The position numbers and the translations under genes are program-made. From positions 1 through 64,000 of IMG/VR virus record IMGVR_UViG_3300036832_001373: a stretch of DNA of 64,000 nucleotides; one strand, given 5' to 3'. This document shows, one piece after another, positions 3,701-59,314 of the stretch (position 1 is the stretch's first letter; each line of letters begins with the position of its first letter). The notes under the pieces were generated by a model. That model searched no databases, was not told the origin of the DNA, and saw nothing but the letters and a program-made list of their open reading frames with translations. The DNA comes from a virus.

Positions 3701-4093
3701 TTGAAATCTAATCAGGAGATAAATAAAGAGGCATGGAGAATATCTCAAGAAACTGGAAGAGATTGGGAGGTAGTTAGGATAGAACTTAGAAGAAAAGAAG
3801 AAGATGAGGCTAACACTCAAACGAGGGATCAAGTGAAAGATAAAGTAGAGGATAAAGAACTTGACAAAATTGATGGCTTCACAGGCTATCTAGAGACACT
3901 TCTTGGAAAGAACGTTTCTATCCTAGTTGATCTAAACTCAAAAGGTGATCCAAATCTAAAAGAAAACTACAGAGGGATAGTAGAAAAAGTTGGGAAAGAT
4001 TTTATCTCACTAAGAATGACTTTAGGTACGGATACTAGAGTTAGAGTAGTAGTTAAAACTTACCTCATTATCTCAGTTTGGGAGTATAAGTAA
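3701..4093 (+). CDS. Hypothetical protein, possible Sm-like C-terminus
   Basis: 130 residues starting at TTG 3701, 4 nt after GGAGGAA. A charged helical N-terminal half is followed by a beta-rich C-terminal half (GKNVSILVDL, YRGIVEKVGKDFISL) that resembles a small-beta-barrel pattern; this is only an impression. No family assigned. Confidence 0.6.
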   Translation: MKSNQEINKEAWRISQETGRDWEVVRIELRRKEEDEANTQTRDQVKDKVEDKELDKIDGFTGYLETLLGKNVSILVDLNSKGDPNLKENYRGIVEKVGKDFISLRMTLGTDTRVRVVVKTYLIISVWEYK

Positions 4094-4114
4094 AATTGAT
4101 TCATTAAGTTGTTT

Positions 4115-4141
4115 AGGGAAAGTAGTTTAAGGAACGTTAAC
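4115..4141 (+). promoter_or_regulatory. Bipartite intergenic motif P1
   Basis: AGGGAAAGTAG, 8 nt, ACGTTAAC; 19 nt before ATG 4161. One of eleven copies with invariant spacing. Confidence 0.65.
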
Positions 4142-4160
4142 AAGTGAGGAGAGAGAGAAA

Positions 4161-4676
4161 ATGGAGAATAGGACGAACTACAAGAAATTATTAATGGTAG
4201 GTACTGTAGTGTTAGTGTTACCTTTGGTAGGTTGTATAGAGGAAGGAGTAGGTCAGCCTAGGGAAAGGAATCCAATTGAAGTATATCCAGCGGCTATTCT
4301 AGCTGACCTATACGGCTTGCCTTACCAGAAGGGTATAGAAGTGGTATCAACAGTGGATAACGTAGAGGTAAAATCTATAACTCTCAACAGAGGAAACTGT
4401 GAGATAAAAGACACATTAAGGACTAGGGGAGTATACACATACAAAGAAGCCAAGTCAAGGGAGGAACTAGGATTTGGAGAATGGGAGTACCAGGATGACT
4501 TTACTCACTGGAGTAAAGTAACATCAGACACAGACTTTTCTAAGAACTGGACATATAGAACCAAAGGGTATAATTTGAAGTATGGAGAGGCTAAGCAACA
4601 CGCACTTTCATGTGATAGAATCTTAGAGATAGCAGTTAAAACTAATCTTGGAGAATATAAATTTGGAGGAGAGTGA
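4161..4676 (+). CDS. Putative lipoprotein
   Basis: 171 residues. A short basic start (NYKKLL) and hydrophobic core end in lipobox LVGC, with the lipidated Cys at residue 25. The product should therefore be exported and anchored in a membrane if made in a Gram-negative host. The mature part has two further Cys and no family I recognise. It could alter the host envelope (superinfection exclusion) or aid lysis; this is inference from location only. Confidence 0.7.
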   Translation: MENRTNYKKLLMVGTVVLVLPLVGCIEEGVGQPRERNPIEVYPAAILADLYGLPYQKGIEVVSTVDNVEVKSITLNRGNCEIKDTLRTRGVYTYKEAKSREELGFGEWEYQDDFTHWSKVTSDTDFSKNWTYRTKGYNLKYGEAKQHALSCDRILEIAVKTNLGEYKFGGE

Positions 4677-4689
4677 AGAATTTTTTAGT

Positions 4690-4835
4690 TGGACGTTCTC
4701 CCCGCGGCCTTTTGCCGCGGGCAAAAGAGGTTAAAAAAGGGGTTTAGCCCCAAAAGGGCCCAAAAAAGGCGTGTTTTTGGGCGAAAAAAGACGCGGCCCC
4801 GCCCCGGGGCGGAAAACGGGGTTCAAACGCACACC
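4690..4835. other. GC-rich inverted-repeat island
   Basis: The island begins with hairpin CCCGCGGC-CTTTT-GCCGCGGG (4701-4721). It continues with alternating A/T runs and G+C blocks (GCCCCAAAAGGGCCC, GGCGTGTTTTTGGGCG, CCCCGCCCCGGGGCGG). The order and wording closely match the island at 34660-34835, and CGGGGCGGAAAA recurs at the end of gene 13069. Confidence 0.75.
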
Positions 4836-10181: not shown

Positions 10182-11309
10182 ATGACAGATCCGATCAAAT
10201 CCCTAGATATGATGGCCAGGGGAGCGTATGATCTGCAGCATCTGAGAATCTCTGCAGGTCTACGTATCTGTGCGGGTTTTAGAGAGAAACTAAAGGAAGG
10301 TGGTGGCTTGGATGTTCTTCTCGAAGACGAAGAAAAAGAATCCAAGGAAACTGAGACTAAGGAGCCGGAGGAAGAAGGACCTTCAGAGTTTGAGTCTGAA
10401 GTGGACGAGGATCCCATAAAAGACACTGACTCTGACGAGAAGAAGGAAGAGAAGAGGAAGGCTAAGGAACTAAAGAAGAAAGCTAAGAAGATTCTCGACC
10501 AACTAAAGAAAAGATACCGTAGGTTAACGGACGGAGTAGCAAGGAACCGTACTCTTCCAAAGAGAGAAGGTTTCACTGGAGACGGAATCATCTCTGAGTT
10601 CGCAGAACTTGTTCTGATTCATGAATATCTTGAATTGGAGAAGCAAGAAACAGTCCAGTTCAAGTATATTGGAGAAGAACTCCAGAGCAGTGGAATTATC
10701 GTGTACTTTGACTGGCTAGTCCACCAAAAAGGCATAGGTCCAGCATTGTCAGCAATCTTGCTAACCAAGTTTGACGTTTATCTGGCTGAGCGTCCCTCGC
10801 AGTTCTTTGCGATAGCTGGCTTAGACGTTGGACCTGGTATCGAAACTGATCCAAACAATAAACTTGCTCGGTCAAGACGAAAGGAACACTTGATCGAGAG
10901 AGAATATGAAGCTAAAGACGGTACAATCAAAACTAAAATGTCAACAACGTTCAATCCTTGGCTCCAAGCCAAGATGCTTGGAGTTCTTGGTCCATCGTTG
11001 ATGAAAGCAAAGAGTCCCTATAAAGAACACTACGATAGGTACAAGCATAGGATCTCAACTGATCCAAATCGACGAAAAGGTACTCTTGCCGACAAGAAGA
11101 GAGAATGGGCAGAAGGAAAAAAGACGGAGGAAATCTGGCACAAGAACAGAATCCATAGAGCTTCGATGAGATATATGGTGAAGCAGTTCATTGGTGATTT
11201 CTGGAGAAAATGGCGAGAGGCAGAAGATCTTCCGACGGTACCACCTTACCATGAAGGTGTGTTAGGGCACAAACATCATGGGCCAGACCCTGCTGAAGCA
11301 GCGGAGTAA
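10182..11309 (+). CDS. IS110 C-terminal (HhH)-like protein
   Basis: 375 residues. Residues 40-110 are an extremely acidic then Lys-rich segment. About 185-225 carry a helix-hairpin-helix block (KGIGPALSAILLTKF, then FFAIAGLDVGPG) typical of the C-terminal domain of IS110/IS116 transposases, followed by a basic region and a conserved tail (ASMRYMVKQFIGDFWRKW, LGHKHHGP). The N-terminal RuvC-like DEDD catalytic domain of real IS110 transposases is not evident, so this is more likely a DNA-binding relative than an active transposase. It directly precedes the 1.7-kb alternating array and may bind it; that link is inference. A strong hairpin follows. Confidence 0.65.
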   Translation: MTDPIKSLDMMARGAYDLQHLRISAGLRICAGFREKLKEGGGLDVLLEDEEKESKETETKEPEEEGPSEFESEVDEDPIKDTDSDEKKEEKRKAKELKKKAKKILDQLKKRYRRLTDGVARNRTLPKREGFTGDGIISEFAELVLIHEYLELEKQETVQFKYIGEELQSSGIIVYFDWLVHQKGIGPALSAILLTKFDVYLAERPSQFFAIAGLDVGPGIETDPNNKLARSRRKEHLIEREYEAKDGTIKTKMSTTFNPWLQAKMLGVLGPSLMKAKSPYKEHYDRYKHRISTDPNRRKGTLADKKREWAEGKKTEEIWHKNRIHRASMRYMVKQFIGDFWRKWREAEDLPTVPPYHEGVLGHKHHGPDPAEAAE

Positions 11310-11320
11310 CTGAAGAGATT

Positions 11321-11355
11321 GGGACGGGAGTTTTGTCTCCATTTTCTCCCGTCCC
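11321..11355 (+). terminator. Strong hairpin between HhH gene and array
   Basis: GGGACGGGAG (11321-11330) pairs with CTCCCGTCCC (11346-11355). The 15-nt loop contains TCTCCATTTT, and TCTCCATTTTC at its edge recurs in a hairpin loop at 37522. There is no T tract. It may terminate the gene or begin an RNA that includes the array. Confidence 0.65.
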
Positions 11356-11356
11356 G

Positions 11357-13063
11357 ATAAAGCCGGATACAATAACAGACCTGAACCCCCTTTAGCGAGC
11401 CGATACCAGTAATAGACCTGTTGGAAGATAGCGAGCCGATGTTGGCCATAGACCCGATCAACGACAGCGAGCCGGAGTGGAAAATAGACCCGTTCATTGT
11501 TAGCGAGCCGACCCACGACAGAGACCCGGTCACTACTAGCGAGCTGAGAAGTCACAGAGACCCGAGCCCGAGGAGCGAGCCGTCAATATCTAGAAACCCG
11601 AAAACCCGAAGCGAGCCGGATGTACCTAGAGACCCGAAATCGTGCAGCGAGCCGACCTGATGAAGAGACCCGATGATCTCATAGCGAGCCGTGCCGTATA
11701 AGAGACCCGAAAGCGGTTAGCGAGTCGATGACACTAATAGATCCGTAGAGGAGGAGCGAGCCGGGTTTTCCAATAGATACGGAACCAAGTAGCGAGCCGA
11801 CAAGTCGAATATAGATCCGATGAGAGCAAGCGAGCCGACCTGATTCAGAGATCCGAACCGAGATAGCGAGCCGACGCTATGTATAGACCCGAAAGCGGTT
11901 AGCGAGTCGAGATCAGGAAGTAACCCGTCGACGACCAAACGAGCCGTTGCCACGAAGTGACCCGAGAGGTGAGAGCGAGCCGGAGCCAATAAGTAGACCC
12001 GTGCGTACATAGCGAGCCGAAGCGAAGAATAGACTCGTCTAATGCTAGCGAGCCGTACTTCCATATAGATCCGATGACCGACAGCGAGCCGATGTGTGGA
12101 AGAGACCCGAGTGAGTGTAGCGAGCCGTATATTTAGAGTGACCCGAATCAAAATAGCGAGCCGGAACGAGGAGGAGACCCGATGAGAATTAGCGAGCCGA
12201 ACAGTGACAGAGACCCGATGGTGACAAGCGAGCCGACCGAAAGAAGAGACCCGAGCTCCCGAAGCGAGCCGAAGTTCCACAGTGACCCGTTTGCGGATAG
12301 CGAGCCGTGTTCCACAATAGACTCGACGAGCAATAGCGAGCCGAGCGGTGAAGATGACCCGAAGTGATAAAGCGAGCCGAACTATCTTAGAGACCCGAGA
12401 TTCTCAAGCGAGCCGAGATCGGGAAGTGACCCGGATAGAAAGTAGCGAGCCGAAAAGGAATAAAGATTCGACATGTACAAGCGAGCCGATGCTATGAAGA
12501 GACCCGTAAGAAGCTAGTGAGCCGAAACGCTCAAGAGACCCGAAAAATAATAGCGAGCCGTGAGTTCGGAGAGACCCGAGGTACGACAGCGAGCCTAGAA
12601 TGGTGAATGACTCGATATAGCACAGCGAGCCGATGACTACCAAAGACCCGACGAGAAATAGCGAGCCGATGTCAGTTAGTGATACGTAACCTTGAAGCGA
12701 GCCGAGAAGCTCTAAGAGACCCCGGTGTCATGTAGCGAGCCGAAGGAAGGGAGAGACCCGTAATGTTTCAGCGAGCCGAAAGAGGTCATTGACCCGTTAT
12801 GCGAAAGCTAGCCGACCTGATTCAGTGACCCGGATCGACTTAGCGAGCCGTAATCGAAAATTGACCCGGTCAATAGTAGCGAGCCGAAAGACGCGATAGA
12901 ACCGGATAGTGATAGCTAGCCGTGGTGTAATAGTGACCCGAACACAGCTAGCGAGCCGAGGAACGGAAGTGACCCGATTAGAGTTAGCGAGCCGGAGCGA
13001 CGGAGAGACCCGTTCATGTCAAGCGAGCCGAGAAACGTGATAGACCCGATCTAGACTAGCGAG
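11357..13063. repeat. Alternating 9-conserved / 9-variable array, 36-bp period
   Basis: About 47 super-units of 36 bp: AGCGAGCCG, 9 variable nt, AGAGACCCG (or AGTGACCCG, ATAGACCCG), 9 variable nt. Both conserved 9-mers fit AGNGANCCG, so the base unit is 18 bp with alternating flavour. A few units have 10 or 11 variable nt. The first unit (11357-11365) is degenerate, and the last is cut to AGCGAG at 13058-13063. Variable parts are mostly unique and contain about 13 in-phase stop codons, near the random expectation, so the array is not one coding region. Some ORF fragments (SEP-xxx-RDP) arise by chance from the 18-bp unit. Confidence 0.92.
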
Positions 13064-13068
13064 GTAAA

Positions 13069-13479
13069 ATGAAGAAAATCGACCAGAAACTAGTTGATCT
13101 TTATCAACAAATGCATGAACTAACTCTCCCTGAGTGCAAAAAGTGTAGGGCACCTTTATCTTGTTGTGACAACTTGTATTGTCTGATGGCAGAAGGTTGG
13201 GCAGCCGAGTTTGGAGTAAAACTGGAGCCTACTGGTCATACTGAGCTAAAATTTATGGGACCAAATGGTTGTACAGTACCTCCACATTTTAGGCCCAATT
13301 GTACGTTGCACGAGTGTAGTATAAACTCACTTGGATTCAAACCAAGAAAATCTAACTGGACTAAAGAGTACTTTAAGTTGAGAGACAAGATTATGGAAGT
13401 TGAATACGAAAACGAAGAAAGGGAATCTCGGTTGGGAGCCGTTAAACCCCGGGCGGGGCGGAAAAACGCCGATGAATGA
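13069..13479 (+). CDS. Cys-rich protein inserted in the array
   Basis: 136 residues. At least eight Cys lie in the first two thirds (CKKCRAPLSCCDNLYC, NGCTVPP, NCTLHEC), suggesting metal binding. The tail (ENEERESRLG, then KPRAGRKNADE) is charged. The SD (GAGGT) is provided by the truncated last array unit. The 3' end crosses a GC-rich GGGCGGGGCGG stretch like the islands, and array units resume right after the stop. No family recognised. Confidence 0.75.
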   Translation: MKKIDQKLVDLYQQMHELTLPECKKCRAPLSCCDNLYCLMAEGWAAEFGVKLEPTGHTELKFMGPNGCTVPPHFRPNCTLHECSINSLGFKPRKSNWTKEYFKLRDKIMEVEYENEERESRLGAVKPRAGRKNADE

Positions 13480-13480
13480 A

Positions 13481-13507
13481 AGTGACCCGAATCCGCTGAG
13501 CGACACC
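13481..13507. repeat. Array remnant beyond the inserted gene
   Basis: AGTGACCCG, 9 nt, AGCGACACC keeps the 18-bp phase of the main array one base after the stop of 13069-13479. This shows the array once extended further or that the gene was inserted near its end. Confidence 0.8.
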
Positions 13508-21969: not shown

Positions 21970-22224
21970 ATGAAAAGTTTGAAATCAAAGTTAAAGAGTG
22001 AAACAAGTAGTCCAGAAGAGTTGTATCTATACGTGTTAAAGAACAAGGAGGGAGAGATCTACATGGTTGATCAGGAGGATGGTACTAAAGCACCTCTAGC
22101 ATTTCCTACTATGGAAGCAGTAAATCACTTTATAAAGACTTACAAGTTTCCTATGGAAGGTATAATAGTTGGAACAATCAAAGCTAGCGACTATCTCTCC
22201 CCTCACGAAAAATGGAGTCACTAA
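21970..22224 (+). CDS. Hypothetical protein
   Basis: 84 residues. LYLYVLKNKEGEIYMVDQED and a C-terminal EGIIVGTIKASDYL. AAAAAGGAGAG precedes the ATG. Function unknown. First gene after motif P5. Confidence 0.6.
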   Translation: MKSLKSKLKSETSSPEELYLYVLKNKEGEIYMVDQEDGTKAPLAFPTMEAVNHFIKTYKFPMEGIIVGTIKASDYLSPHEKWSH

Positions 22225-22225
22225 G

Positions 22226-22525
22226 ATGAACGTTGCAGATAGAGCAGGTCTTGGACCCAAAAGAGAACTATCGAAGAACGAAGATGAAACTTGGACTTTG
22301 AAGGTTTCACCTCCTGCTTGGGCAGGATTTGATCCTGATTATTCATCTTCGATCGTTCTAACCGAAGATCAAGTTAAGAGATTTTGCGAGTGGCAAGATA
22401 CAGGAATCTTGATCCAGAACGCTTTTCCAGATTTAAACGCTAGTCAACGAGAGATTATTCTAAGTGGTATCGGAAACAATGAGTTTCAGAATCTAGCAGA
22501 TGACGAAGACGAAGCTTCCTTCTAA
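22226..22525 (+). CDS. Hypothetical protein
   Basis: 99 residues from ATG 22226, 1 nt after the previous stop, with AATGGAG upstream. Contains KVSPPAWAGFDPDYSSSIVL and an acidic end. Function unknown. Confidence 0.6.
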   Translation: MNVADRAGLGPKRELSKNEDETWTLKVSPPAWAGFDPDYSSSIVLTEDQVKRFCEWQDTGILIQNAFPDLNASQREIILSGIGNNEFQNLADDEDEASF

Positions 22526-28060: not shown

Positions 28061-28753
28061 ATGCCTGAATGCTATAACTGTGCAATTTGCGGGAAGGAAT
28101 TTTATAAGAGTTTCTTCCGTCTTCACATAGAAGATGTTCATAGTATCTCACCACAGAGATACTATCACCAATACTTAAGTCCAGGGACTATTCCTAATAG
28201 GTGTCTAAAATGTGGGAAAGAATTAAAATTTATTAAGTTATCTAAGCCTTATGGAGATTTTTGTAGTAGATCATGCAGATCATCAACTGTAATGTCTTCC
28301 TTGAATAAGGAATGGTGGACAGATCCTACTTATCGAGAATTACATTCTAAACTTTCGTCTGAGACGATGACTAAAACCTTAAATAGAAGATGGGCTGATC
28401 CAATTCAAAGAGAAGAAATGATTAAGAATACTAGAAATGGATTAATAAGAGTAATAAAAGAAGAAAATCATGTCCCTTATATGACTAAAGGAGAATTTTT
28501 AATTAGAGACTATCTGTCGAACCTAGGGTTTAATCATAGTTATCCCTATTGGACAAAGAATAAAGTTCAAATTAAGATGGATTTCTTCAATAAGATCACT
28601 AAGGTAAACATAGAAATTGATGGTACTTCTCATGAAAAATCTGAGACTCAGGAATACGACTCTTACAGAGATTGTATTCTAGAAGAAGAAAACGTGTTGA
28701 TAGTTAGGATTAAGGACGAGGATTGTAATTATATAAAGGACATATTTAGATGA
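28061..28753 (+). CDS. Vsr-like homing endonuclease with zinc fingers
   Basis: 230 residues. The N-terminal C2H2-type finger (CAICGKEF, then HIEDVH) is followed by a treble-clef-like RCLKCGKEL and FCSRSC, then repeated WADP-type DNA-binding spacers. The C-terminal nuclease domain (TKGEFLIRDYLSNLGF, then IKMDFF, then NIEIDGTSHE) matches Vsr/PD-(D/E)XK-like endonucleases of the I-Bth0305I type. It abuts the topoisomerase gene, which starts at its stop (ATGA), a typical site for a mobile endonuclease gene. Confidence 0.75.
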   Translation: MPECYNCAICGKEFYKSFFRLHIEDVHSISPQRYYHQYLSPGTIPNRCLKCGKELKFIKLSKPYGDFCSRSCRSSTVMSSLNKEWWTDPTYRELHSKLSSETMTKTLNRRWADPIQREEMIKNTRNGLIRVIKEENHVPYMTKGEFLIRDYLSNLGFNHSYPYWTKNKVQIKMDFFNKITKVNIEIDGTSHEKSETQEYDSYRDCILEEENVLIVRIKDEDCNYIKDIFR

Positions 28754-30552
28754 ACAAACCAGAGATAGAAGTTTTAACAGAAGCTGCCCACATAAGATTA
28801 AGACCAGGAAACTATATAGGTAGTACAGAAAACGCAACACACCTCTTCTCCGAGGTCTTTGATAATTCACTTGACGAGGCAGCGGCAGGATACTGTAGCC
28901 AAATTAATATATCGTATCATGAGGATCATTTTAGTGTAAAAGACAACGGTAGAGGTCTCTCCCAGGATTGGAACGAAGAGTTTAAAACTTACGATCCTAT
29001 ACTTGTGGCAACAAAATTATTTAGTGGAGGTAAATTTAATAAAAATACATATAAAATATCGGTAGGATTAAATGGTATTGGTCTTCCAGCAGTAAATTAT
29101 CTCTCAGATAAGATCTTGATACTTTCTGCTAGGAATTCTAAAGGATTTTGGGTTCAGTTTCAGGAAGGTATTCCAGGGGAACCTAAGATCCAAGATATCA
29201 GAGCTGATGAACACGGAACATACGTTATAGTATGGCCATCTAAAAAATACTTCAACTCAATAAAAATTGATCCAATCATAGTTGAGGCTAGAGCTAGGCT
29301 AGCAGCGACATTTCTTCAAAACCTTAAAATTATAGTTAATACCATAGAAGTTAAACCCTATACTGCAAAAGACTTTTGTCCAGACTGTGATACGCCTATT
29401 ATGGAAGTTAAAGTTAGTCTAGCAAATGGAGAAAGTGCTTATGCAATCTTTGGATATGATACAAAATCAACCAGAACAGAAACTGGACGAGGAAGCGTTA
29501 ATCTCCTCTCTGTTAACCAAGGCTCTCATATTAGAGCTTTCGAGAAATCTGTTGGAGAAGCATGGCAGAGAGTTTTGGACAAAGATACAGCAGACTATCT
29601 CGACTTCAGAGATACCTTAGTTGGATTGAAAGGATTTATACTTGTTAATATAAGAGAACCAAAATGGAATTCTCAAACTAAAGACAATCTTGGAGGACGC
29701 ATATCTGAGTATCAAAGTTTGGTTGATGGCCTAACTGCTAAGATAGTCCAAGCTTTAGATAAGTTACCAGTAACTGTTATGAAGGCCTTAATCCTTAAGT
29801 TTAAGGATTATCGTTCACACATTAACCAGATGACTTCATCCAAGTTCTTAGATGAAGTCCTTAGACTAGGAGAAGCAGGTGATAATAACATCAATCGTGG
29901 TATTCGTCTTGATTCTAAGCTTGTTGACTGTACATCAGTATCGAGAAGAGATACAGAACTCTTCATTGTCGAAGGGGATTCTGCTGGTGGGAACCTTATC
30001 GCTAAACGGGATCGTCGTATTCATGCTGTACTTCCTTTACGAGGAAAAACTCTCAATGTCGTGGATCGTGAACTAGAAGTTATTCTTAATAACACCGAGA
30101 TAAGATCGTTAGTTAATGCTATAGGATGTGGAGTGCGTCAGAAAGAAAATCCAGATCGAATACGTTATAGCAAAATAATCATATGTAGCGACGGAGACGT
30201 TGATGGACGAAGCATCCAAGCTTTACTTATAGGAGCTCTTGGAAGTCTTATCCCAAAGACCGTACGAAGAGGCCTCATACATATTATCGAAGCTCCATTG
30301 TTTGGACAATGGTCTAAAGACGGAAAATTTATACCAGTATGGTCTCAGGATGAACTATCACCTGGACTTAGGACTTCTAGATTTAAGGGTCTTGGTTCGT
30401 TCAACGCCAACGAATTGGCAGTATCAATACTGAACCCTTCAGTCAGAAGGCTTAAGAGACTTATAACCGAGGACACAAGAGGTATTACGAGACTGGTAGG
30501 AAACTCTGGTGCACGAAGAGAAATGCTTCTCGAGAGAGGAATTATAAAGTGA
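28750..30552 (+). CDS. Type II DNA topoisomerase, large (ATPase/TOPRIM) subunit
   Basis: 600 residues, GyrB/ParE/T4 gp39-like. GHKL ATPase: RPGNYIGS and EVFDNSLDEA near the N-terminus, DNGRGL, then GGKFNK and GLNGIGLPAVN. TOPRIM: VEGDSAGG at about residue 407 and SDGDVDG at about 480. It lacks the long C-terminal extension of GyrB, as in phage forms. With 31864-33177 it should form an A2B2 enzyme that relaxes or decatenates phage DNA. Overlaps the endonuclease gene by 4 nt. Confidence 0.9.
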   Translation: MNKPEIEVLTEAAHIRLRPGNYIGSTENATHLFSEVFDNSLDEAAAGYCSQINISYHEDHFSVKDNGRGLSQDWNEEFKTYDPILVATKLFSGGKFNKNTYKISVGLNGIGLPAVNYLSDKILILSARNSKGFWVQFQEGIPGEPKIQDIRADEHGTYVIVWPSKKYFNSIKIDPIIVEARARLAATFLQNLKIIVNTIEVKPYTAKDFCPDCDTPIMEVKVSLANGESAYAIFGYDTKSTRTETGRGSVNLLSVNQGSHIRAFEKSVGEAWQRVLDKDTADYLDFRDTLVGLKGFILVNIREPKWNSQTKDNLGGRISEYQSLVDGLTAKIVQALDKLPVTVMKALILKFKDYRSHINQMTSSKFLDEVLRLGEAGDNNINRGIRLDSKLVDCTSVSRRDTELFIVEGDSAGGNLIAKRDRRIHAVLPLRGKTLNVVDRELEVILNNTEIRSLVNAIGCGVRQKENPDRIRYSKIIICSDGDVDGRSIQALLIGALGSLIPKTVRRGLIHIIEAPLFGQWSKDGKFIPVWSQDELSPGLRTSRFKGLGSFNANELAVSILNPSVRRLKRLITEDTRGITRLVGNSGARREMLLERGIIK

Positions 30553-30887
30553 TGTCAGAACATAAAATCAAAGATAAAGCTCGTAAGTTAGCTGAGACTT
30601 TGACAAAAGAGTTTACTGACAAAGGACTTATAATCGAAGCTGGGTGGCAAAGTTTAAAGATCATGTCTATTCCAGAGGATGCTCCAGAAATTCAAATTGA
30701 TGAAATGCGTAACGCATTCTTTGCTGGAGCAAGTCACTTATTTTCATCTATTGTAGTGATACTAGATCCGGGGGAAGAACCTACAGAACGTGATATCGAA
30801 CGTTTGGATTTAATCAACAAAGAACTAGAAAGATTTATGGAAGATTATAAACTTAAACACTTGATAAGACCAGAAGGCTCAGCCTAA
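30552..30887 (+). CDS. Tandem paralogous protein 1
   Basis: 111 residues. AGWQSLKIM, then IDEMRNAFFAGASHLFSSI, then IERLDLINKELERFM and RPEGSA. The same arrangement occurs in the next gene, so the pair arose by tandem duplication. Function unknown. Starts in the topoisomerase stop. Confidence 0.7.
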   Translation: MSEHKIKDKARKLAETLTKEFTDKGLIIEAGWQSLKIMSIPEDAPEIQIDEMRNAFFAGASHLFSSIVVILDPGEEPTERDIERLDLINKELERFMEDYKLKHLIRPEGSA

Positions 30888-31223
30888 ATGAGGAATAATC
30901 AAATGAGAAAATCTAGAAGAAGGAGACTAACCAAGGAGGAAGCTTATATCATACTTAGAAAAGCTCTAGCTGAGGAAAAGATTATAGAACTTGGATGGAA
31001 GAGTATTGAGAGGAATACTTTACGAGGAGTACCTGGATATCAGGTTACTGAGATGAAGAAAGCATTTTATATGGGAGCTTATCACTTGTTTAGTGTTCTA
31101 TCAACTCTTGTAGATCTTGAAGAGAAGGAAAATTTTCAAGATCTAAATCCTATGGACGCTATAAGCAGAGAGTTGGGAGAATTTAAGCTAGAGTATCTTA
31201 CGGAGACTGAGGGAACAGCATGA
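30888..31223 (+). CDS. Tandem paralogous protein 2
   Basis: 111 residues. LGWKSIERN, then VTEMKKAFYMGAYHLFSVL, then MDAISRELGEFKLEYLTETE mirror the preceding gene, with a more basic N-terminus (RKSRRRRLTKEE). Starts directly after the previous stop and overlaps the next gene. Confidence 0.7.
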   Translation: MRNNQMRKSRRRRLTKEEAYIILRKALAEEKIIELGWKSIERNTLRGVPGYQVTEMKKAFYMGAYHLFSVLSTLVDLEEKENFQDLNPMDAISRELGEFKLEYLTETEGTA

Positions 31224-31807
31224 GTGAAGTACGGAAGCTAGAGGAACGAACCCATAAAAGATCAAATGTACCTCTTCAAGGAGAAGTTTACGTAAAAGGA
31301 TACAATGTATACAAAGTTGCAGCATTCAACCAGGATGAGGATACTGTGTTGTTTGCTACAACCAACGATGTGATCCAGAGTTTTGGCCAGATACCTAGAT
31401 TGGAGGTTAGAAGGAGAGGTTTTTATCTTTGTCCAGTTCAACTACAGGAACCAGCTGTTCAGGTTTTCGAGTTAGATGAACAATTTACTAATTCAAGTTT
31501 TAACAAGCTACATAAATATAGACTTGACAATCATAAGCTTTTTTCCAAACTTGGATTAGACTATATAATGTTAGATATAGCTCAGAATACGACTAGAGTA
31601 TATACACCTCCTAAAATTCAAATTGAACAATTTCCAGAACTAAAAAATAAAGAATTTAACGTACTTATTCCTTTTTATTGTCTAACTAAGAAAGAGTTCA
31701 AGAATCGACTTTTTGGAATGCTACATTCAAAAGCGAAAGACTATTACAACGAGGGTATGAAACATTCACGTTGGCCACTTTTCTATGTACCACCAAGGTT
31801 CATGTAA
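31220..31807 (+). CDS. Hypothetical protein
   Basis: 195 residues, beta-rich first half (GEVYVKGYNVYKVAAFNQDE) and aromatic C-terminal half (ending FYVPPRFM). Lies between the two topoisomerase subunit genes. No family recognised. Confidence 0.65.
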   Translation: MSEVRKLEERTHKRSNVPLQGEVYVKGYNVYKVAAFNQDEDTVLFATTNDVIQSFGQIPRLEVRRRGFYLCPVQLQEPAVQVFELDEQFTNSSFNKLHKYRLDNHKLFSKLGLDYIMLDIAQNTTRVYTPPKIQIEQFPELKNKEFNVLIPFYCLTKKEFKNRLFGMLHSKAKDYYNEGMKHSRWPLFYVPPRFM

Positions 31808-31819
31808 GCAAACTAGTTT

Positions 31820-31846
31820 AGGGAAACTAGGCGGTGGGACGTTAAC
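31820..31846 (+). promoter_or_regulatory. Bipartite intergenic motif P7
   Basis: AGGGAAACTAG, 8 nt, ACGTTAAC; consensus copy, 17 nt before ATG 31864 of the topoisomerase medium subunit. Confidence 0.7.
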
Positions 31847-31863
31847 CTTTAGAGGTGAGATAT

Positions 31864-33177
31864 ATGTCTGACTTAGACGCCTACGAACATGTAGCAGATT
31901 GCTATTCTGAGTACGCTAAACATGTTAATGGTCATAGGTCAATTCCTAGTAGTCGCGATGGAATGAAACTCGTCCAGCGTAGGTTATTATCTACATTTCT
32001 ATTGAAAGAAAATTCCTCAGGAGAGATCGCCTCATCGTCGATTATTGGTTCTACAATAAAATTTTATCACCCTCACGGAGAGTCATCCATATATAGTGCT
32101 ATGGTAAAAATGATTACTGACCATCAACCTGTTATCGATGGACACGGAAATTTTGGTTCGAGATTGTTTGCTATGACGCTTGGGCCAGCAGCACCTAGAT
32201 ATACCAAGGCAAAGTTAAATGAACTTGGAAAACGTTATGGAGACCTAATCAGATTTACAGAGTATTATACCAACGAAAACGAAGAGGAAGAGCCTTTATT
32301 TGTTCCAACGTATCTTCCATACGCTTTATTAAACGGTGCTTTAGGTATAGGAATTGGTTGTGCTACTAACGTTCCTTCGTTTGAACTAGAAGACATTAAA
32401 AAAGCAGTTAAAGAGTTACTTGGAGGAACTAGAGTTGAGAATGTTACTCCTATGAAACCTTCCTCTCCAGGAGGCGGAAAGATAGAAATAGACGAGAAAA
32501 ACCTTAGATCGTTAAATTTTGAAGGAAGAGGAATGGGGTACTCTTGTGCAGATGTTAGTTGGTTTCACGATCCAATCTCACAGCAAAATGCTTTGAAGAT
32601 ATCAAATGTTCCAAACTACGTTAACTTACAAAAGTTAACTGTTATTCTTAAGTCCGAGATAACCGATGGATTGATTTTCATACGAGATGAATCACAAGAC
32701 AACATATGTGTAGTAGTTGGAAGAAATAAATATGTTAAGAGGATAAGCGACAATGAACTGGAGAAAAAAGTTAGATGGGTTTCTAGGAGACGTATATCTT
32801 GGAATTGCACTTTTAGTCATGAGGGAATAGCACAAACTATGTCACCTATTAAGATACTGGAGACTTCTCTTAATTTTGCAATCGAATGTAACACTAGATG
32901 GATGAAACATGAGAAAGAAAAAGTGGAGGAAGAAATTATCTTTGAGTCGGTCAAACACGAACTTGCTAAACTCCTTTCTGGAGGCGTATCAGATGATAGT
33001 ATCAGAAGGAGGCTTAGCCTTACTGAGGAGCAATTTAGAAATTTTGTTCAACGACCACTCTCCAAGCTTAGGTCAGCCAAAAAGGATACTGAGGAGTTGC
33101 AGAAAAAAGTTGGACGCCTCACGGAGTTCATACGTACTCCGAAGAGAGCTTACCGAGAAAGAATAGGTCTTCTATGA
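31864..33177 (+). CDS. Type II DNA topoisomerase, medium (cleavage) subunit
   Basis: 437 residues, GyrA/ParC/T4 gp52-like. IPSSRDGMKLVQRRLL near the N-terminus, FYHPHGESSIY, QPVIDGHGNFGS, then APRYTKAKL with catalytic Tyr at about 113. PTYLPYALLNGALGIGIGCA follows. The C-terminal beta-pinwheel of GyrA is absent, as in T4 gp52. ATG 31864 is preferred to GTG 31855 because GAGGTGA then serves as SD. Partner of 28750-30552. Confidence 0.9.
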   Translation: MSDLDAYEHVADCYSEYAKHVNGHRSIPSSRDGMKLVQRRLLSTFLLKENSSGEIASSSIIGSTIKFYHPHGESSIYSAMVKMITDHQPVIDGHGNFGSRLFAMTLGPAAPRYTKAKLNELGKRYGDLIRFTEYYTNENEEEEPLFVPTYLPYALLNGALGIGIGCATNVPSFELEDIKKAVKELLGGTRVENVTPMKPSSPGGGKIEIDEKNLRSLNFEGRGMGYSCADVSWFHDPISQQNALKISNVPNYVNLQKLTVILKSEITDGLIFIRDESQDNICVVVGRNKYVKRISDNELEKKVRWVSRRRISWNCTFSHEGIAQTMSPIKILETSLNFAIECNTRWMKHEKEKVEEEIIFESVKHELAKLLSGGVSDDSIRRRLSLTEEQFRNFVQRPLSKLRSAKKDTEELQKKVGRLTEFIRTPKRAYRERIGLL

Positions 33178-46598: not shown

Positions 46599-48353
46599 AT
46601 GTTAACAGTTAGCGAACTTGAAAGGTTGATCGTTGAAGCAGCAGAAAGGTACTATCTAGATGAGTCTAGGATGTCAGATGAACAGTTTGATAAGTACGTA
46701 GAAGAGCTAAGGATACGGAATCCTTCTTCCCCTCTTCTGACTCAAGTTGGTTGGGGATGTATGAGAAAGAGTTATCGTGATAAAGTTCTTCTTCCAGTTA
46801 AGATTATAGCTTCATTACCAAAGGTTCAATACAATAATTTTCTATTAAACGGTGAGATGATAGCGTCTCCTAAAGTAGACGGTATGAGTTGTATCCTCCA
46901 CTATTCAGATGGGATACTTAAGCAAGCTGTAACCAGAGGAGACGGAGAGTTTGGAATTGATATTACTCAAAAGATGAGAAAGATAGGAGTACCAGTAGAA
47001 GTTGATTCTGTAGGAGAACAATTCATCCGAGGAGAACTTTACATAGATACAAGAACTTTTCAAAACTATCTAGCTAATGAATATGCAAACCCAAGAAATG
47101 CAGTTGCTGGAATAATTAATTCAAAAAGTTATGATAGGCTAGAGTTTGTGACTTTTGGAGCCCATCCTCAAGACGATATAACTTGCTTAAGTCACCACGA
47201 CCAAGAACTCTTAAAGATGCTTCCAGAATGGATAATTAAAACAAAGATTAATATTGAGGAGGCAAGAAGACATTCAATAGATGAAGGATATCCAATTGAT
47301 GGTATAGTACTCCATAAGACAGGTTTAGAAGATGCTATAGCTATTAAGTTTGAAACCGAGAGTATGGACACTATTGTACGTAAAATTGAGTGGGAGGAGA
47401 GACGTGGTGGTAAAATGATTCCTATAGTTTTGTATGAACCAGTTAGATTGTATGGTACTGAATGTACAAAGTGTTCTGGATTCAATTATGCTTACATAAG
47501 AGATAATCAAATTGGACCTGGAGCTAAGATACGTTTGACGAAAGCTAATGAAATTATTCCGTACATTACGGAAGTTGTCTCTCCAGGAGAGTTTACAAAT
47601 ATGGAGGACGAGTTTCATGTAGTAGAAGGAGCTCACCTATTCCATCTAAGATTCGATCAGTATAAGTACTCTTTAGAGAAGTTTGTAGCTTGGCATTATA
47701 ATATAGATGGTTTCAAGAGACCAGAAGTTATACTGTATGCACTTGGAGTTACGACTTTCAAAGGATTAGCAAGTCGCATAACATCTATGTCCAAGGAAGA
47801 TATGATTAAGGGCTTGAACAACTATGGAGTATACTCAGTAGCAGAAAAAGTTGCTGATAAACTTAAGTCTAAGATTTATATAAACAATTTCTTTCAACAG
47901 TTCGCTATAAACGGAATAGGTCCAGTTGAAGCTGGAAAGCTACAAAGGTATATACATCAATATTATACTCATGAAAGCTTTGACATGACTAGACTTGGAA
48001 TCAGAGCTAACGTTATATCTGAGTTAAGCAAGCCAGAGATAAGGAATATTATTAGAGAGTGTTTTATAGAATATCACAATGCTAACCTATGGGAAGAGAA
48101 AGTCACGGACGATATCTCTCATAAAGTTAAGTTTTGTATAAGCGGTCGTTTGCCATCTGGACTTAAGAAAGAGCTTTTTGCAAAATTGATGCCAGAGAAT
48201 TATATAATGGTCGATTATGTCGATAAAAGCGTAGTGTGTCTAATTACTAATGAGGATAGTACCTCCAAGGTTAAAACAGCTAGAAGGCTAAACGTTACAA
48301 TCCTGAGTGAAAATGAAGCCAGAGGAGCATTTAAAATTGAAACGAAGGGATGA
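46599..48353 (+). CDS. ligA: NAD+-dependent DNA ligase
   Basis: 584 residues. SPKVDGMS carries the adenylated Lys (residue 92), followed by TRGDGEFG, RGELY, NPRNAVAG and DGIVLHK, all LigA signatures. An OB-fold follows (GPGAKIRLTKANEIIPYI). The four-Cys zinc finger that normally follows the OB-fold is missing. An HhH region (INGIGPVEAGKL) and a C-terminal BRCT-like domain (VKFCISGRLPSG) are present. Seals nicks in phage replication and repair. Confidence 0.92.
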   Translation: MLTVSELERLIVEAAERYYLDESRMSDEQFDKYVEELRIRNPSSPLLTQVGWGCMRKSYRDKVLLPVKIIASLPKVQYNNFLLNGEMIASPKVDGMSCILHYSDGILKQAVTRGDGEFGIDITQKMRKIGVPVEVDSVGEQFIRGELYIDTRTFQNYLANEYANPRNAVAGIINSKSYDRLEFVTFGAHPQDDITCLSHHDQELLKMLPEWIIKTKINIEEARRHSIDEGYPIDGIVLHKTGLEDAIAIKFETESMDTIVRKIEWEERRGGKMIPIVLYEPVRLYGTECTKCSGFNYAYIRDNQIGPGAKIRLTKANEIIPYITEVVSPGEFTNMEDEFHVVEGAHLFHLRFDQYKYSLEKFVAWHYNIDGFKRPEVILYALGVTTFKGLASRITSMSKEDMIKGLNNYGVYSVAEKVADKLKSKIYINNFFQQFAINGIGPVEAGKLQRYIHQYYTHESFDMTRLGIRANVISELSKPEIRNIIRECFIEYHNANLWEEKVTDDISHKVKFCISGRLPSGLKKELFAKLMPENYIMVDYVDKSVVCLITNEDSTSKVKTARRLNVTILSENEARGAFKIETKG

Positions 48354-54691: not shown

Positions 54692-55176
54692 TGAAATATA
54701 CGATCTATCATGTACCAAAAGGTCCTAAGAAAAAGATAGGAGCCACCGATGACTACCCTAATCGCTGCTACGATCAAGGATTCAAGGACGGAGAATTCTA
54801 CGTTGAGGACCAGATATCTAAGGTATGTGGAACTGAGTTTGCAGGAAAGGTGGAAAGATTTTGGCAGTGGTATTACGGACTAGAAGAACCTAGTAATACG
54901 ATTCAGTACCATAAAAGTGCATTTGTTACAGGGGCTGCACAAAGGGCTTCGTTAGTCAGTCCAAATCACATTGCTAAAACTGGAAGGACTGGGTTCCAAA
55001 CTAGAGTAGCTAATAGAGCATCTGTAGAAAGTCCTAATCATATCTCTAAAACAGGTCGGTCTGGATTCCAATCAGGAGCTTCTAGAAGAAGGACACCGTG
55101 TCCCGAGTGCGGAAGAGTAATGGCTCTAACAAATCTAGGTCGTCATAGAAAATCTAGACATGGTATAGTTGCATGA
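54688..55176 (+). CDS. GIY-YIG-type homing endonuclease with zinc finger
   Basis: 162 residues; ATG 54688 and 54691 are both possible, overlapping the previous stop. YTIYHVPKGPKKKIGATDDY is a degenerate GIY-YIG core. Three SPNHI(A/S)K-type repeats with TGRTGFQ linkers follow, then CPECGRVMALTNLGRHRKSR as a C2H2 finger. Sits exactly between the SSB-like and RecA genes, an insertion position that leaves both intact. Confidence 0.75.
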   Translation: MMKYTIYHVPKGPKKKIGATDDYPNRCYDQGFKDGEFYVEDQISKVCGTEFAGKVERFWQWYYGLEEPSNTIQYHKSAFVTGAAQRASLVSPNHIAKTGRTGFQTRVANRASVESPNHISKTGRSGFQSGASRRRTPCPECGRVMALTNLGRHRKSRHGIVA

Positions 55177-56474
55177 TCCATAAATGGACTCATGACATAA
55201 TCCGGACTCCGATTGACACGATAAATGTCATCGGAGCCGGAGGTGTCGATCAAGGAACAATAACTGAAATAGCTGGTCCTCCTGGGTCAGGAAAATCGGC
55301 TTATGCATATGGAACCGCTTCCAATTTTCTAAAGGACAATCAGGAAGGAGTGGTAGTTATCCTTGATCCTGAGCTTTCAGTGGATCTAATTAGATTGGAG
55401 TATACATTTGAGCTAGACATGAGTAGAGTTATCATCAACAATGCTAGAACTTTGGAAGATGGGTTTACTGAGATATTTAAAATTCTTAAGGATCAGACTA
55501 CATCCTCTACTGTAGATACTACAGTTGAATCGTTCTTAGCAGGATGGAAACTAGAAGATGCAATGAAACTTCTTAAAGAAATTAAGATTGATTTTAATCT
55601 ATCTTTATTAGACGAAAACGTGCAAACTGATCAAGAAGTTATAATGAAGGCTAGGAAAGACATAGCTACTATATTAGCTTTTAGGGGAAAGCTTAAACCC
55701 AGAAAACCTGTTCCTATTTTGATAGTTTGGGATACCATAGCTGCTAGCAAACCAAAAGCAGAAGTTGAAGCAGCGATGAGCGGTAAGGATCCTATGAATG
55801 CTGGAGGGATGGGTTTAAGAGCTAGAGTTCTAGAGATTAATTTAGCAATTGTTATGGCCTCTCTTTATGAGAGACCAGTGACTGTGTTTCTTTTGAATCA
55901 GATACGAACCTCTGGATTTGGAACTTACGGAGGACCAAAGGAAGGATCTTCTGGAGGCAATGCTTTGAAGCACGCCAACCATTACTATCTTTGGTTTTCT
56001 TGGAGTAAAAAACTCTACGATGAGAAAACTAAGATGTATATAGGATCTAAAAGTAAGGTTTCAGTTTTGAAGTCTAAGTTTGGACCAACAATTGAAAATA
56101 TACCAATTTATATTAATGATCAGGTTGGAGGGAAAATAGTTTCTGACAATGAACCAGCGTTGGTGGCTATAGATATAGGATTTATTTACTCTTCTGGAGC
56201 TTGGTGGAAGATTAAAGGAGATCAATCGTCGTATAGGTGGGATAAAACTGAAAGGGGTGGGTATATAACAAATAATCCCGAGGTTAGAAAGAGGTGTATT
56301 GAAGCTATAGTACGGCACTTTAGAAAGAACTACTTTACCCTAGACATAGTTTATAAGAAATTAGGAGTAACACTTGGACAATTAACTGACGAAGAGACTG
56401 AGACTCGAAACTCTATATTCAATAAGTCCGCTTTTAAACCGATTCTTCAGGAGGAGAAGATCACAAATGACTAA
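55173..56474 (+). CDS. RecA/UvsX-like recombinase
   Basis: 433 residues. Walker A GPPGSGKS at residues 35-42, then VVVILDPELSVDL, Walker B-like ILIVWDTIAASKP, loop 2 region GGMGLRARVLE and LLNQIRTSGFGTYGG. Longer than RecA because of an insertion between residues 105 and 165. Catalyses strand exchange for repair and recombination-dependent replication. Overlaps the endonuclease by 4 nt. Confidence 0.88.
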   Translation: MIHKWTHDIIRTPIDTINVIGAGGVDQGTITEIAGPPGSGKSAYAYGTASNFLKDNQEGVVVILDPELSVDLIRLEYTFELDMSRVIINNARTLEDGFTEIFKILKDQTTSSTVDTTVESFLAGWKLEDAMKLLKEIKIDFNLSLLDENVQTDQEVIMKARKDIATILAFRGKLKPRKPVPILIVWDTIAASKPKAEVEAAMSGKDPMNAGGMGLRARVLEINLAIVMASLYERPVTVFLLNQIRTSGFGTYGGPKEGSSGGNALKHANHYYLWFSWSKKLYDEKTKMYIGSKSKVSVLKSKFGPTIENIPIYINDQVGGKIVSDNEPALVAIDIGFIYSSGAWWKIKGDQSSYRWDKTERGGYITNNPEVRKRCIEAIVRHFRKNYFTLDIVYKKLGVTLGQLTDEETETRNSIFNKSAFKPILQEEKITND

Positions 56475-58700: not shown

Positions 58701-59314
58701 CAGACAACGATCTGTTTAATCCAGATCCAGAACTATTCGACCCAAGATTTGTAGGACCTAAAGGGTCGAATAGTCCTCATCTATACATAATTGGAGAAGC
58801 TCCTGGATACAATGAGGCGGAGCAGGGGCTTCCCTTTGTTGGAAAGGCAGGAATGGTTCTAGATAGAGCTATAGTAGAGTCAAAAATAGATTCATCAAAG
58901 ATACGGTTCTTTAATGCTATTCCGTATAGACCGTTTGAGTGGGTTGAAGGAAAGAAAGAGAATAGGACTCCATCTTCAGATGAGATTGAGAAATACTCAG
59001 TCTTCTTAAAGAAGGATATAGATAAAACAAAACCAAAGGTATTATTGTTGACTGGAGCATCAGCAATGAACGTCTTTGGTATTAGTATGGCAGTTGGATC
59101 AGCTAGATTAAGTAAATTTAAGTGGAAAGATATACCTACGTTGGTAACATACCATCCTAGCTTTGTTCTAAGAAAAAGTGGGTATGGAATAGTATCTTCA
59201 GGAACCTCTGAAAGCTTTGAAACCCTAGTTGGAGATCTCAAGAGAGCGTGGATCGGAGATCAAGAAACAGTTCAGACTAACAAGTTCTCGATAATCGATA
59301 TGGAGGAAGAATGA
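58697..59314 (+). CDS. Uracil-DNA glycosylase, family 4-like
   Basis: 205 residues from ATG 58697, overlapping the previous stop. GEAPGYNEAEQGLPFVGKAG is the family 4/5 active-site motif, and TYHPSFVLR is the His-containing second motif. The four Fe-S Cys of typical family 4 enzymes are absent from this start. A longer start would add only two. Removes uracil from DNA or regulates replication, as in phages that encode it next to the polymerase. Confidence 0.82.
   Translation: MTDNDLFNPDPELFDPRFVGPKGSNSPHLYIIGEAPGYNEAEQGLPFVGKAGMVLDRAIVESKIDSSKIRFFNAIPYRPFEWVEGKKENRTPSSDEIEKYSVFLKKDIDKTKPKVLLLTGASAMNVFGISMAVGSARLSKFKWKDIPTLVTYHPSFVLRKSGYGIVSSGTSESFETLVGDLKRAWIGDQETVQTNKFSIIDMEEE

What the first reader, a model, noticed from the sequence alone, without database searches (positions are those of the whole stretch)
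11357..13063. 1.7-kb non-coding array of alternating conserved and variable 9-mers
Seen directly: about 47 units of 36 bp, each AGCGAGCCG, 9 variable nt, AG(A/T)GACCCG, 9 variable nt. Both conserved parts fit AGNGANCCG, so the unit is 18 bp with two alternating flavours. Unlike CRISPR, repeats and spacers are both 9 nt; unlike ordinary minisatellites, half the sequence is free to vary while spacing is held (a few 10-11 nt exceptions). Variable parts carry about 13 in-phase stops in some 276 codons, near chance. Fixed spacing with free content suggests a binding ladder for an oligomeric protein, a replication or partition site, or an RNA scaffold/sponge. I know of no described phage element of this form.
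Basis: partly seen in the sequence, partly recalled or inferred. Interest (0 to 1): 0.92.

Follow-up and report, generated by a model that had tools for sequence, protein, structure and literature searches.

The report
Phage TIGR guide-RNA array with TasA
The strange striped sequence is a long TIGR array, a published (2025) phage system in which dozens of small two-part guide RNAs steer a partner protein to DNA; this one has about 47 guides and its partner gene lies next door, so it is a new example of a known kind whose natural purpose is still unknown.

Summary
In detail: 11360-13063 holds about 94 half-units of 18 nt in which two 9-nt repeats (AGCGAGCCG and a looser A[G/T][A/T]GACCCG) alternate between 9-nt variable segments. 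The region is not translated. It is not an undescribed element. [quoted passage not shown] The gene just upstream (10182-11309, 375 aa) is that Tas protein. Its family profile finds the solved TasR (E 7e-28) and TasH (E 3e-21) structures, and the eleven best fold matches of its model are all TIGR-Tas entries. No nuclease domain was found, so it is of the TasA type. The same arrangement occurs in at least 39 of 51 IMG/VR stretches with the motif, and the repeats change together with the Tas clade. Inferred mechanism: the array RNA is cut into about 47 tigRNAs that guide a TasA dimer to 18-bp DNA targets, bound and bent without cutting. No target was found above chance. Unusual: array length, loose loop repeat, acidic insert in TasA.

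The parts
10182..11309 (+). tasA-type gene: 375-aa Nop-domain Tas protein without a recognisable nuclease domain; acidic/charged insert at about residues 44-122
   Evidence: PDB phmmer best hit TasH E=1e-4; family profile hits TasR 9mty E=7e-28 and TasH 21kl E=2.8e-21; Foldseek top 11 all TIGR-Tas; PHROG 4285 E=3e-26; PF02371 IS110-type C-terminal domain in 22 of 28 family members
11318..11358 (+). hairpin between the tas stop codon and the array, ending next to the first truncated repeat; role unknown (no T-run follows, so not a classical terminator)
   Evidence: inverted repeat; RNA fold -26.7 kcal/mol, z=-2.14
11360..11365 (+). 5'-truncated edge repeat (AAGCCG) that opens the array
   Evidence: sequence; such a start is typical of TIGR arrays (PMC12045711)
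11360..13063 (+). TIGR array: 94 nine-nt spacers, 47 predicted 36-nt tigRNA units; edge AGCGAGCCG, loop A[G/T][A/T]GACCCG
   Evidence: same motif in 51 viral stretches
13058..13063 (+). 3'-truncated edge repeat (AGCGAG) that closes the array; the next ORF starts 6 nt further on (ATG at 13069), so array RNA and the downstream gene are probably co-transcribed
   Evidence: sequence, unit table
13433..13507 (+). remnant: one loop-like AGTGACCCG (13481), a 9-nt spacer and a partial edge repeat, with an edge-like GGAGCCG upstream
   Evidence: and sequence

Best explanation
The locus is a TIGR-Tas system of the TasA type on a 147.5-kb phage record. The + strand array downstream of the tas gene is a precursor RNA. 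Each 36-nt unit runs from the middle of one edge repeat (AGCGAGCCG), through spacer A, the loop repeat (A[G/T][A/T]GACCCG) and spacer B, to the middle of the next edge repeat. It would be trimmed to a tigRNA bound by a TasA dimer; the AG and CCG ends of both repeats act as box D and box C and contact the two Nop domains. Spacer A pairs with one DNA strand and spacer B with the other, giving an 18-bp target. With no RuvC or HNH domain, TasA would bind, unwind and sharply bend the target rather than cut it, so about 47 guides would act as a multiplex repressor, or as an RNA-guided DNA-bending device, against competing genetic elements or host genes. Shown here: array anatomy, Tas homology and fold, absence of a recognisable nuclease domain, and co-variation of repeat and Tas clade. 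Inferred from the published family: transcription, processing, the tandem-spacer targeting rule. Unproven: what is targeted and why.
For: Array: alternating repeats, 9-nt spacers, 40 of 46 edge-to-edge steps exactly 36 nt, truncated edge repeats at both ends, as in the published definition. Partner: the adjacent protein matches TasH, its family profile matches TasR E=7e-28 and TasH E=3e-21 well ahead of IS110 transposases, and the top 11 Foldseek matches are TasH/TasR complexes. Relatives: 51 IMG/VR stretches carry the array motif and 39 of them encode the same protein family nearby. Co-variation: the window and L022, whose Tas proteins are 57% identical, share the loop AGAGACCCG and lack the G that precedes both repeats in the other clade; L039 (31%) likewise lacks it and uses AGAGATCCG. 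The characterised SpTasH phage CGphi29 is found by L022's Tas and its array reads AGCGAGCCA / AAGACAACCA. Related arrays share blocks of identical spacers and differ by whole units.
Against: No RNA data. Processing and binding were not tested for this protein. The structure model is of moderate quality (pLDDT 65; TM about 0.35-0.58). The loop repeat has T instead of the box D G in about a third of copies, looser than in relatives, so some units may be weak. No spacer-pair target was found in the phage's own genome or in related phages.
Confidence: 0.94

Rival explanations
1. A DNA-level binding ladder (iterons, partition or replication site) for an oligomeric protein; the variable parts are mere spacing.
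For: Fixed 18-nt spacing and conserved 9-mers fit a protein ladder; the paper notes TasA loci that neighbour ParB-like genes.
Against: The neighbouring protein belongs to an RNA-binding Nop family. Spacers are kept base for base in blocks between related phages and change by whole units, which mere spacing would not need. Both ends are truncated edge repeats as in processed guide arrays.
Confidence: 0.03
2. An IS110-type transposon with bridge RNA: the 10182 protein is a transposase and the array its substrate.
For: PF02371 matches 22 of 28 family members, PHROG 4285 is labelled transposase, and IS621 is a weaker profile match.
Against: The IS621 match covers only IS621 residues 106-239, so there is no sign of the N-terminal DEDD domain. 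TasR and TasH score far better. Bridge RNAs are single two-loop units, not arrays of alternating 9-mers.
Confidence: 0.02
3. A repetitive protein-coding minisatellite (SEPxxxRDPxxx repeats).
For: 18 and 36 are multiples of 3; a 187-aa ORF is open on the minus strand at 11717-12280.
Against: Stops in all six frames across the array; several single-base length changes break any frame; spacers are unrelated at nucleotide level.
Confidence: 0.01

Closest known systems
TIGR-TasH of Salicola phage CGphi29 (SpTIGR, Faure et al. 2025, PMC12045711)
   Same: Phage-borne; array directly downstream of tas; edge repeat AGCGAGCC[A/G]; alternating loop repeat; truncated final edge (read directly); homologous Nop domain.
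   Different: SpTasH has an N-terminal HNH nuclease and 8-nt spacers (16 nt in all) in a short array; here box C ends in CCG, spacers are 9 nt, there are about 47 units, and no nuclease domain was found.
TIGR-TasA systems (solo Nop domain, e.g. FpTIGR of Flavonifractor plautii)
   Same: Nuclease-less Nop protein with a dual-repeat array and 9-nt spacers.
   Different: Published arrays most often have 5-15 units, this one about 47; this TasA carries a long acidic insert. The FpTIGR sequence itself was not compared here.
TIGR-TasR (9mty)
   Same: Best profile match in the PDB (E=7e-28); same tandem-spacer logic expected.
   Different: TasR has an N-terminal RuvC nuclease and UG/CCA boxes; no RuvC domain was detected here.
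IS110/IS621 bridge-RNA recombinases and box C/D snoRNPs
   Same: Share the Nop-type RNA-binding fold (IS621 profile match E=1.6e-9; snoRNP link from PMC12045711).
   Different: No recombinase domain, no bridge RNA; a guide array instead.

Membership tests
TIGR-Tas (dual-repeat type) | Two distinct alternating repeats of 8-12 nt separated by 9-nt spacers | tested here: met
   AGCGAGCCG and A[G/T][A/T]GACCCG, 9-nt spacers, 18-nt step
[quoted passage not shown]
   AAGCCG at 11360-11365 and AGCGAG at 13058-13063; the 'typical' terminator part is not met: an ORF starts 6 nt after the array
TIGR-Tas (dual-repeat type) | Adjacent gene for a Nop-domain Tas protein | tested here: met
   10182-11309; profile to TasR/TasH, fold search
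[quoted passage not shown]
   The preceding G and the CCG end are shared by both repeats within a locus and the G is lost from both together in the window's Tas clade; in the window the G of AG in the loop repeat is loose
TIGR-Tas (dual-repeat type) | Array transcribed and processed to 36-nt tigRNAs bound by Tas | not testable with these tools
   No RNA data
TIGR-Tas (dual-repeat type) | tigRNA-guided binding of both DNA strands | not testable with these tools
   Binding itself needs an experiment; a search for matching targets in own and related phage DNA gave nothing above chance
TasA subtype | Nop domain alone, no HNH or RuvC domain | tested here: met
   No HNH or RuvC match in Pfam; PDB matches start at residue 120 of TasR and 76 of TasH; the N-terminal part is predicted helical with a low-confidence acidic insert
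IS110 transposase | N-terminal DEDD domain plus bridge RNA | tested here: not met
   The match to IS621 is restricted to residues 106-239 of that protein
CRISPR array | Repeats of about 25-36 nt with spacers of similar length | tested here: not met
   9-nt alternating repeats and 9-nt spacers

The most novel reading that the evidence does not exclude
A nuclease-less TIGR-TasA with about 47 guides that a phage uses as a multiplex, non-cutting, RNA-guided DNA-binding or bending machine against rivals or host genes, whose guide repertoire turns over between phages by gain and loss of whole 36-nt units as in CRISPR arrays.
Probability: 0.35. Interest if true: 0.65.

Novelty: new member of a known kind. 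Interest (0 to 1): 0.4.

Why it matters
It settles a puzzling sequence as a member of a recently described RNA-guided family. It adds a long-array TasA example, with 51 further array-bearing stretches of viral DNA that can be compared. The published work calls the natural targets, the purpose of TasA and the way arrays grow open questions; sets of related arrays such as those listed here (shared blocks of identical spacers, changes by whole units) are the material needed to answer the last one.

Tried and rejected
(1) Rfam scan: no family. (2) Coding reading: stops in all six frames. (3) Self-targets: spacer pairs in both possible orders with 0-2 nt gaps against the whole 147.5-kb genome gave no excess over pairs with shuffled partners. 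(4) Targets in related array-bearing contigs: 2 exact hits for 608 guides, against 0-3 per order in controls. The single hit in the window is in the order not predicted by the cutting geometry and has too large a gap, so it was treated as chance. (5) The window's Tas protein as query in viral contigs found no confirmed relatives; relatives came through the array motif instead. (6) The 78 bacterial genome stretches that match the DNA pattern are mostly chance or coding repeats; only L061, and weakly L117, show alternating edge and loop repeats. (7) Scanning IMG/VR for targets of single guides was not done: by my estimate several chance hits per 18-nt query are expected, so it would not have been informative.

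Full report
What is there. The region 11360-13063 is an array of 18-nt half-units. Two repeats alternate: AGCGAGCCG, nearly invariant, and a looser one, A[G/T][A/T]GACCCG. Between them lie 9-nt segments that are close to random in all positions but the first and, slightly, the last. Strict AGNGANCCG occurs 61 times in the array, once just after it (13481), and nowhere else in the 64 kb on either strand. In the 147.5-kb record the two-repeat pattern occurs only there. The array opens with a truncated repeat, AAGCCG, directly after a strong hairpin (11318-11358), and closes with a truncated repeat, AGCGAG, directly before the next start codon (ATG at 13069). It holds 94 spacers, or 47 units of 36 nt; 40 of 46 full steps are exactly 36 nt (from the unit table). 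All reading frames contain stops.

What it is. Two observations identified it. First, the same motif is in 51 stretches of viral metagenome DNA, nearly always as an alternation of AGCGAGCCG with AGAGAACCG or a variant at 18 nt. Second, a gene for a protein with the motif GIGPxxAxxLLAxxD...AGLDP lies beside the arrays. A profile built from the first of these finds 41 members: 40 in 39 of the 51 stretches, plus the window's 10182 gene. A family profile searched against the PDB gives TasR (9mty, E=7e-28) and TasH (21kl, E=3e-21), then IS110 transposases (E=1.6e-9 and 2.9e-8). The predicted structure of the window protein, though only of moderate confidence (pLDDT 65), has TasH or TasR complexes as its first eleven Foldseek matches, with IS621 next. 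The published description of TIGR-Tas (PMC12045711) matches the array point by point: alternating edge and loop repeats of 8-12 nt, 9-nt spacers, truncated edge repeats at both ends, and a neighbouring Nop protein, mostly in phages.

Which part is which. In the published TasR structure the edge repeat has an extra internal base pair that the loop repeat lacks. AGCGAGCCG can form such a pair (C3-G6); AGAGACCCG cannot. AGCGAGCCG is therefore assigned as edge and A[G/T][A/T]GACCCG as loop, which also fits the truncated AGCGAG and AAGCCG at the ends. The Salicola phage CGphi29 array, one of those characterised in the paper, reads AGCGAGCCA and AAGACAACCA in alternation and ends in a truncated AGCGAGCC followed by a terminator, which supports the assignment.

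Independent support from relatives. The window's Tas protein is 57% identical to that of L022 and 31% to that of L039, and 17-25% to the rest. These three loci alone lack the G that precedes both repeats in all the others, and they have their own loop repeats (AGAGACCCG, AGAGACCCG, AGAGATCCG). Repeats of both kinds thus change together with the protein, as expected if one symmetric protein dimer reads both.

How it probably works. The tas gene and array lie on one strand. The array RNA would be cut within the edge repeats into 36-nt tigRNAs, each held by a TasA dimer. Spacer A pairs with one DNA strand and spacer B with the other. From the published 8-nt 3' overhang and C-5 rule the target should read spacer B followed by the reverse complement of spacer A, with a gap of 0-2 nt (my derivation). 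No HNH or RuvC domain was found in the window protein, so binding and bending rather than cutting is expected. These steps are inferred from the family and were not tested here.

Targets and turnover. No spacer pair matches the phage's own genome above the shuffled-partner level, nor other array-bearing contigs. Within the window array, two spacers recur exactly and two recurrences have the same offset (10 spacers), which points to an old block duplication with most spacers since replaced. Between related phages, arrays share runs of identical spacers and differ by insertion or loss of even numbers of spacers in clear cases (L042/L047: six spacers; L014/L032: two spacers), which keeps the edge/loop phase. 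This resembles spacer turnover in CRISPR arrays, but the sample is small. Spacer G+C is pulled toward 50% relative to the surrounding contig (window 46% against 39%; most others about 53% against 64%), so spacers do not look like random pieces of the phage's own genome.

What is unusual. The array is long (about 47 units; most published arrays have 5-15). The loop repeat is loose at positions 2-3. The TasA carries a charged insert of about 80 residues. The array abuts the next gene without a terminator. None of this takes it outside the known kind.

Verdict. Observation confirmed. The claim of an undescribed element is not upheld; this is a new member of the TIGR-Tas family, TasA type.

Noticed in passing
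L147 (Microcystis phage Mvi-JY20, PP438412.1, about 22090-22450): A cultured cyanophage carries a TIGR-like array (TGCGAGCC / ACGAAACCC alternating) just after a hypothetical protein homologous to Tas, ending in a truncated edge repeat and a T-run terminator; nothing is annotated as an array there.
   Followed up: partly
L019:621-2747 (-): The 709-aa Tas protein looks like a Tas interrupted by an intein (CCAPGTTI ... VHNC) with homing-endonuclease-like sequence.
   Followed up: no
L042:3183-3953 and 3965-4774 (-): Two neighbouring ORFs both match the Tas family profile; possibly a duplicated or split gene.
   Followed up: no
L042/L047, L014/L032, L010/L026: Related arrays share blocks of identical spacers and differ by whole 36-nt units; useful for studying how TIGR arrays grow.
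   Followed up: partly
window array and L001-L051: Spacer G+C lies nearer to 50% than the surrounding genome in nearly all loci.
   Followed up: partly
L061 (Proteobacteria MAG contig JAJYTL010000167.1): Alternating edge/loop repeats at both ends of a 7.2-kb contig in a bacterial bin; probably a phage contig.
   Followed up: no
window 11717-12280 (-): A 187-aa open frame on the minus strand of the array; probably fortuitous.
   Followed up: no
window 28750-33177: Phage-encoded topoisomerase II subunits, with NAD-dependent ligase (46599-48353), UvsX-like recombinase (55173-56474) and DNA polymerase (59311-62265) further on: a large phage with its own replication genes.
   Followed up: partly
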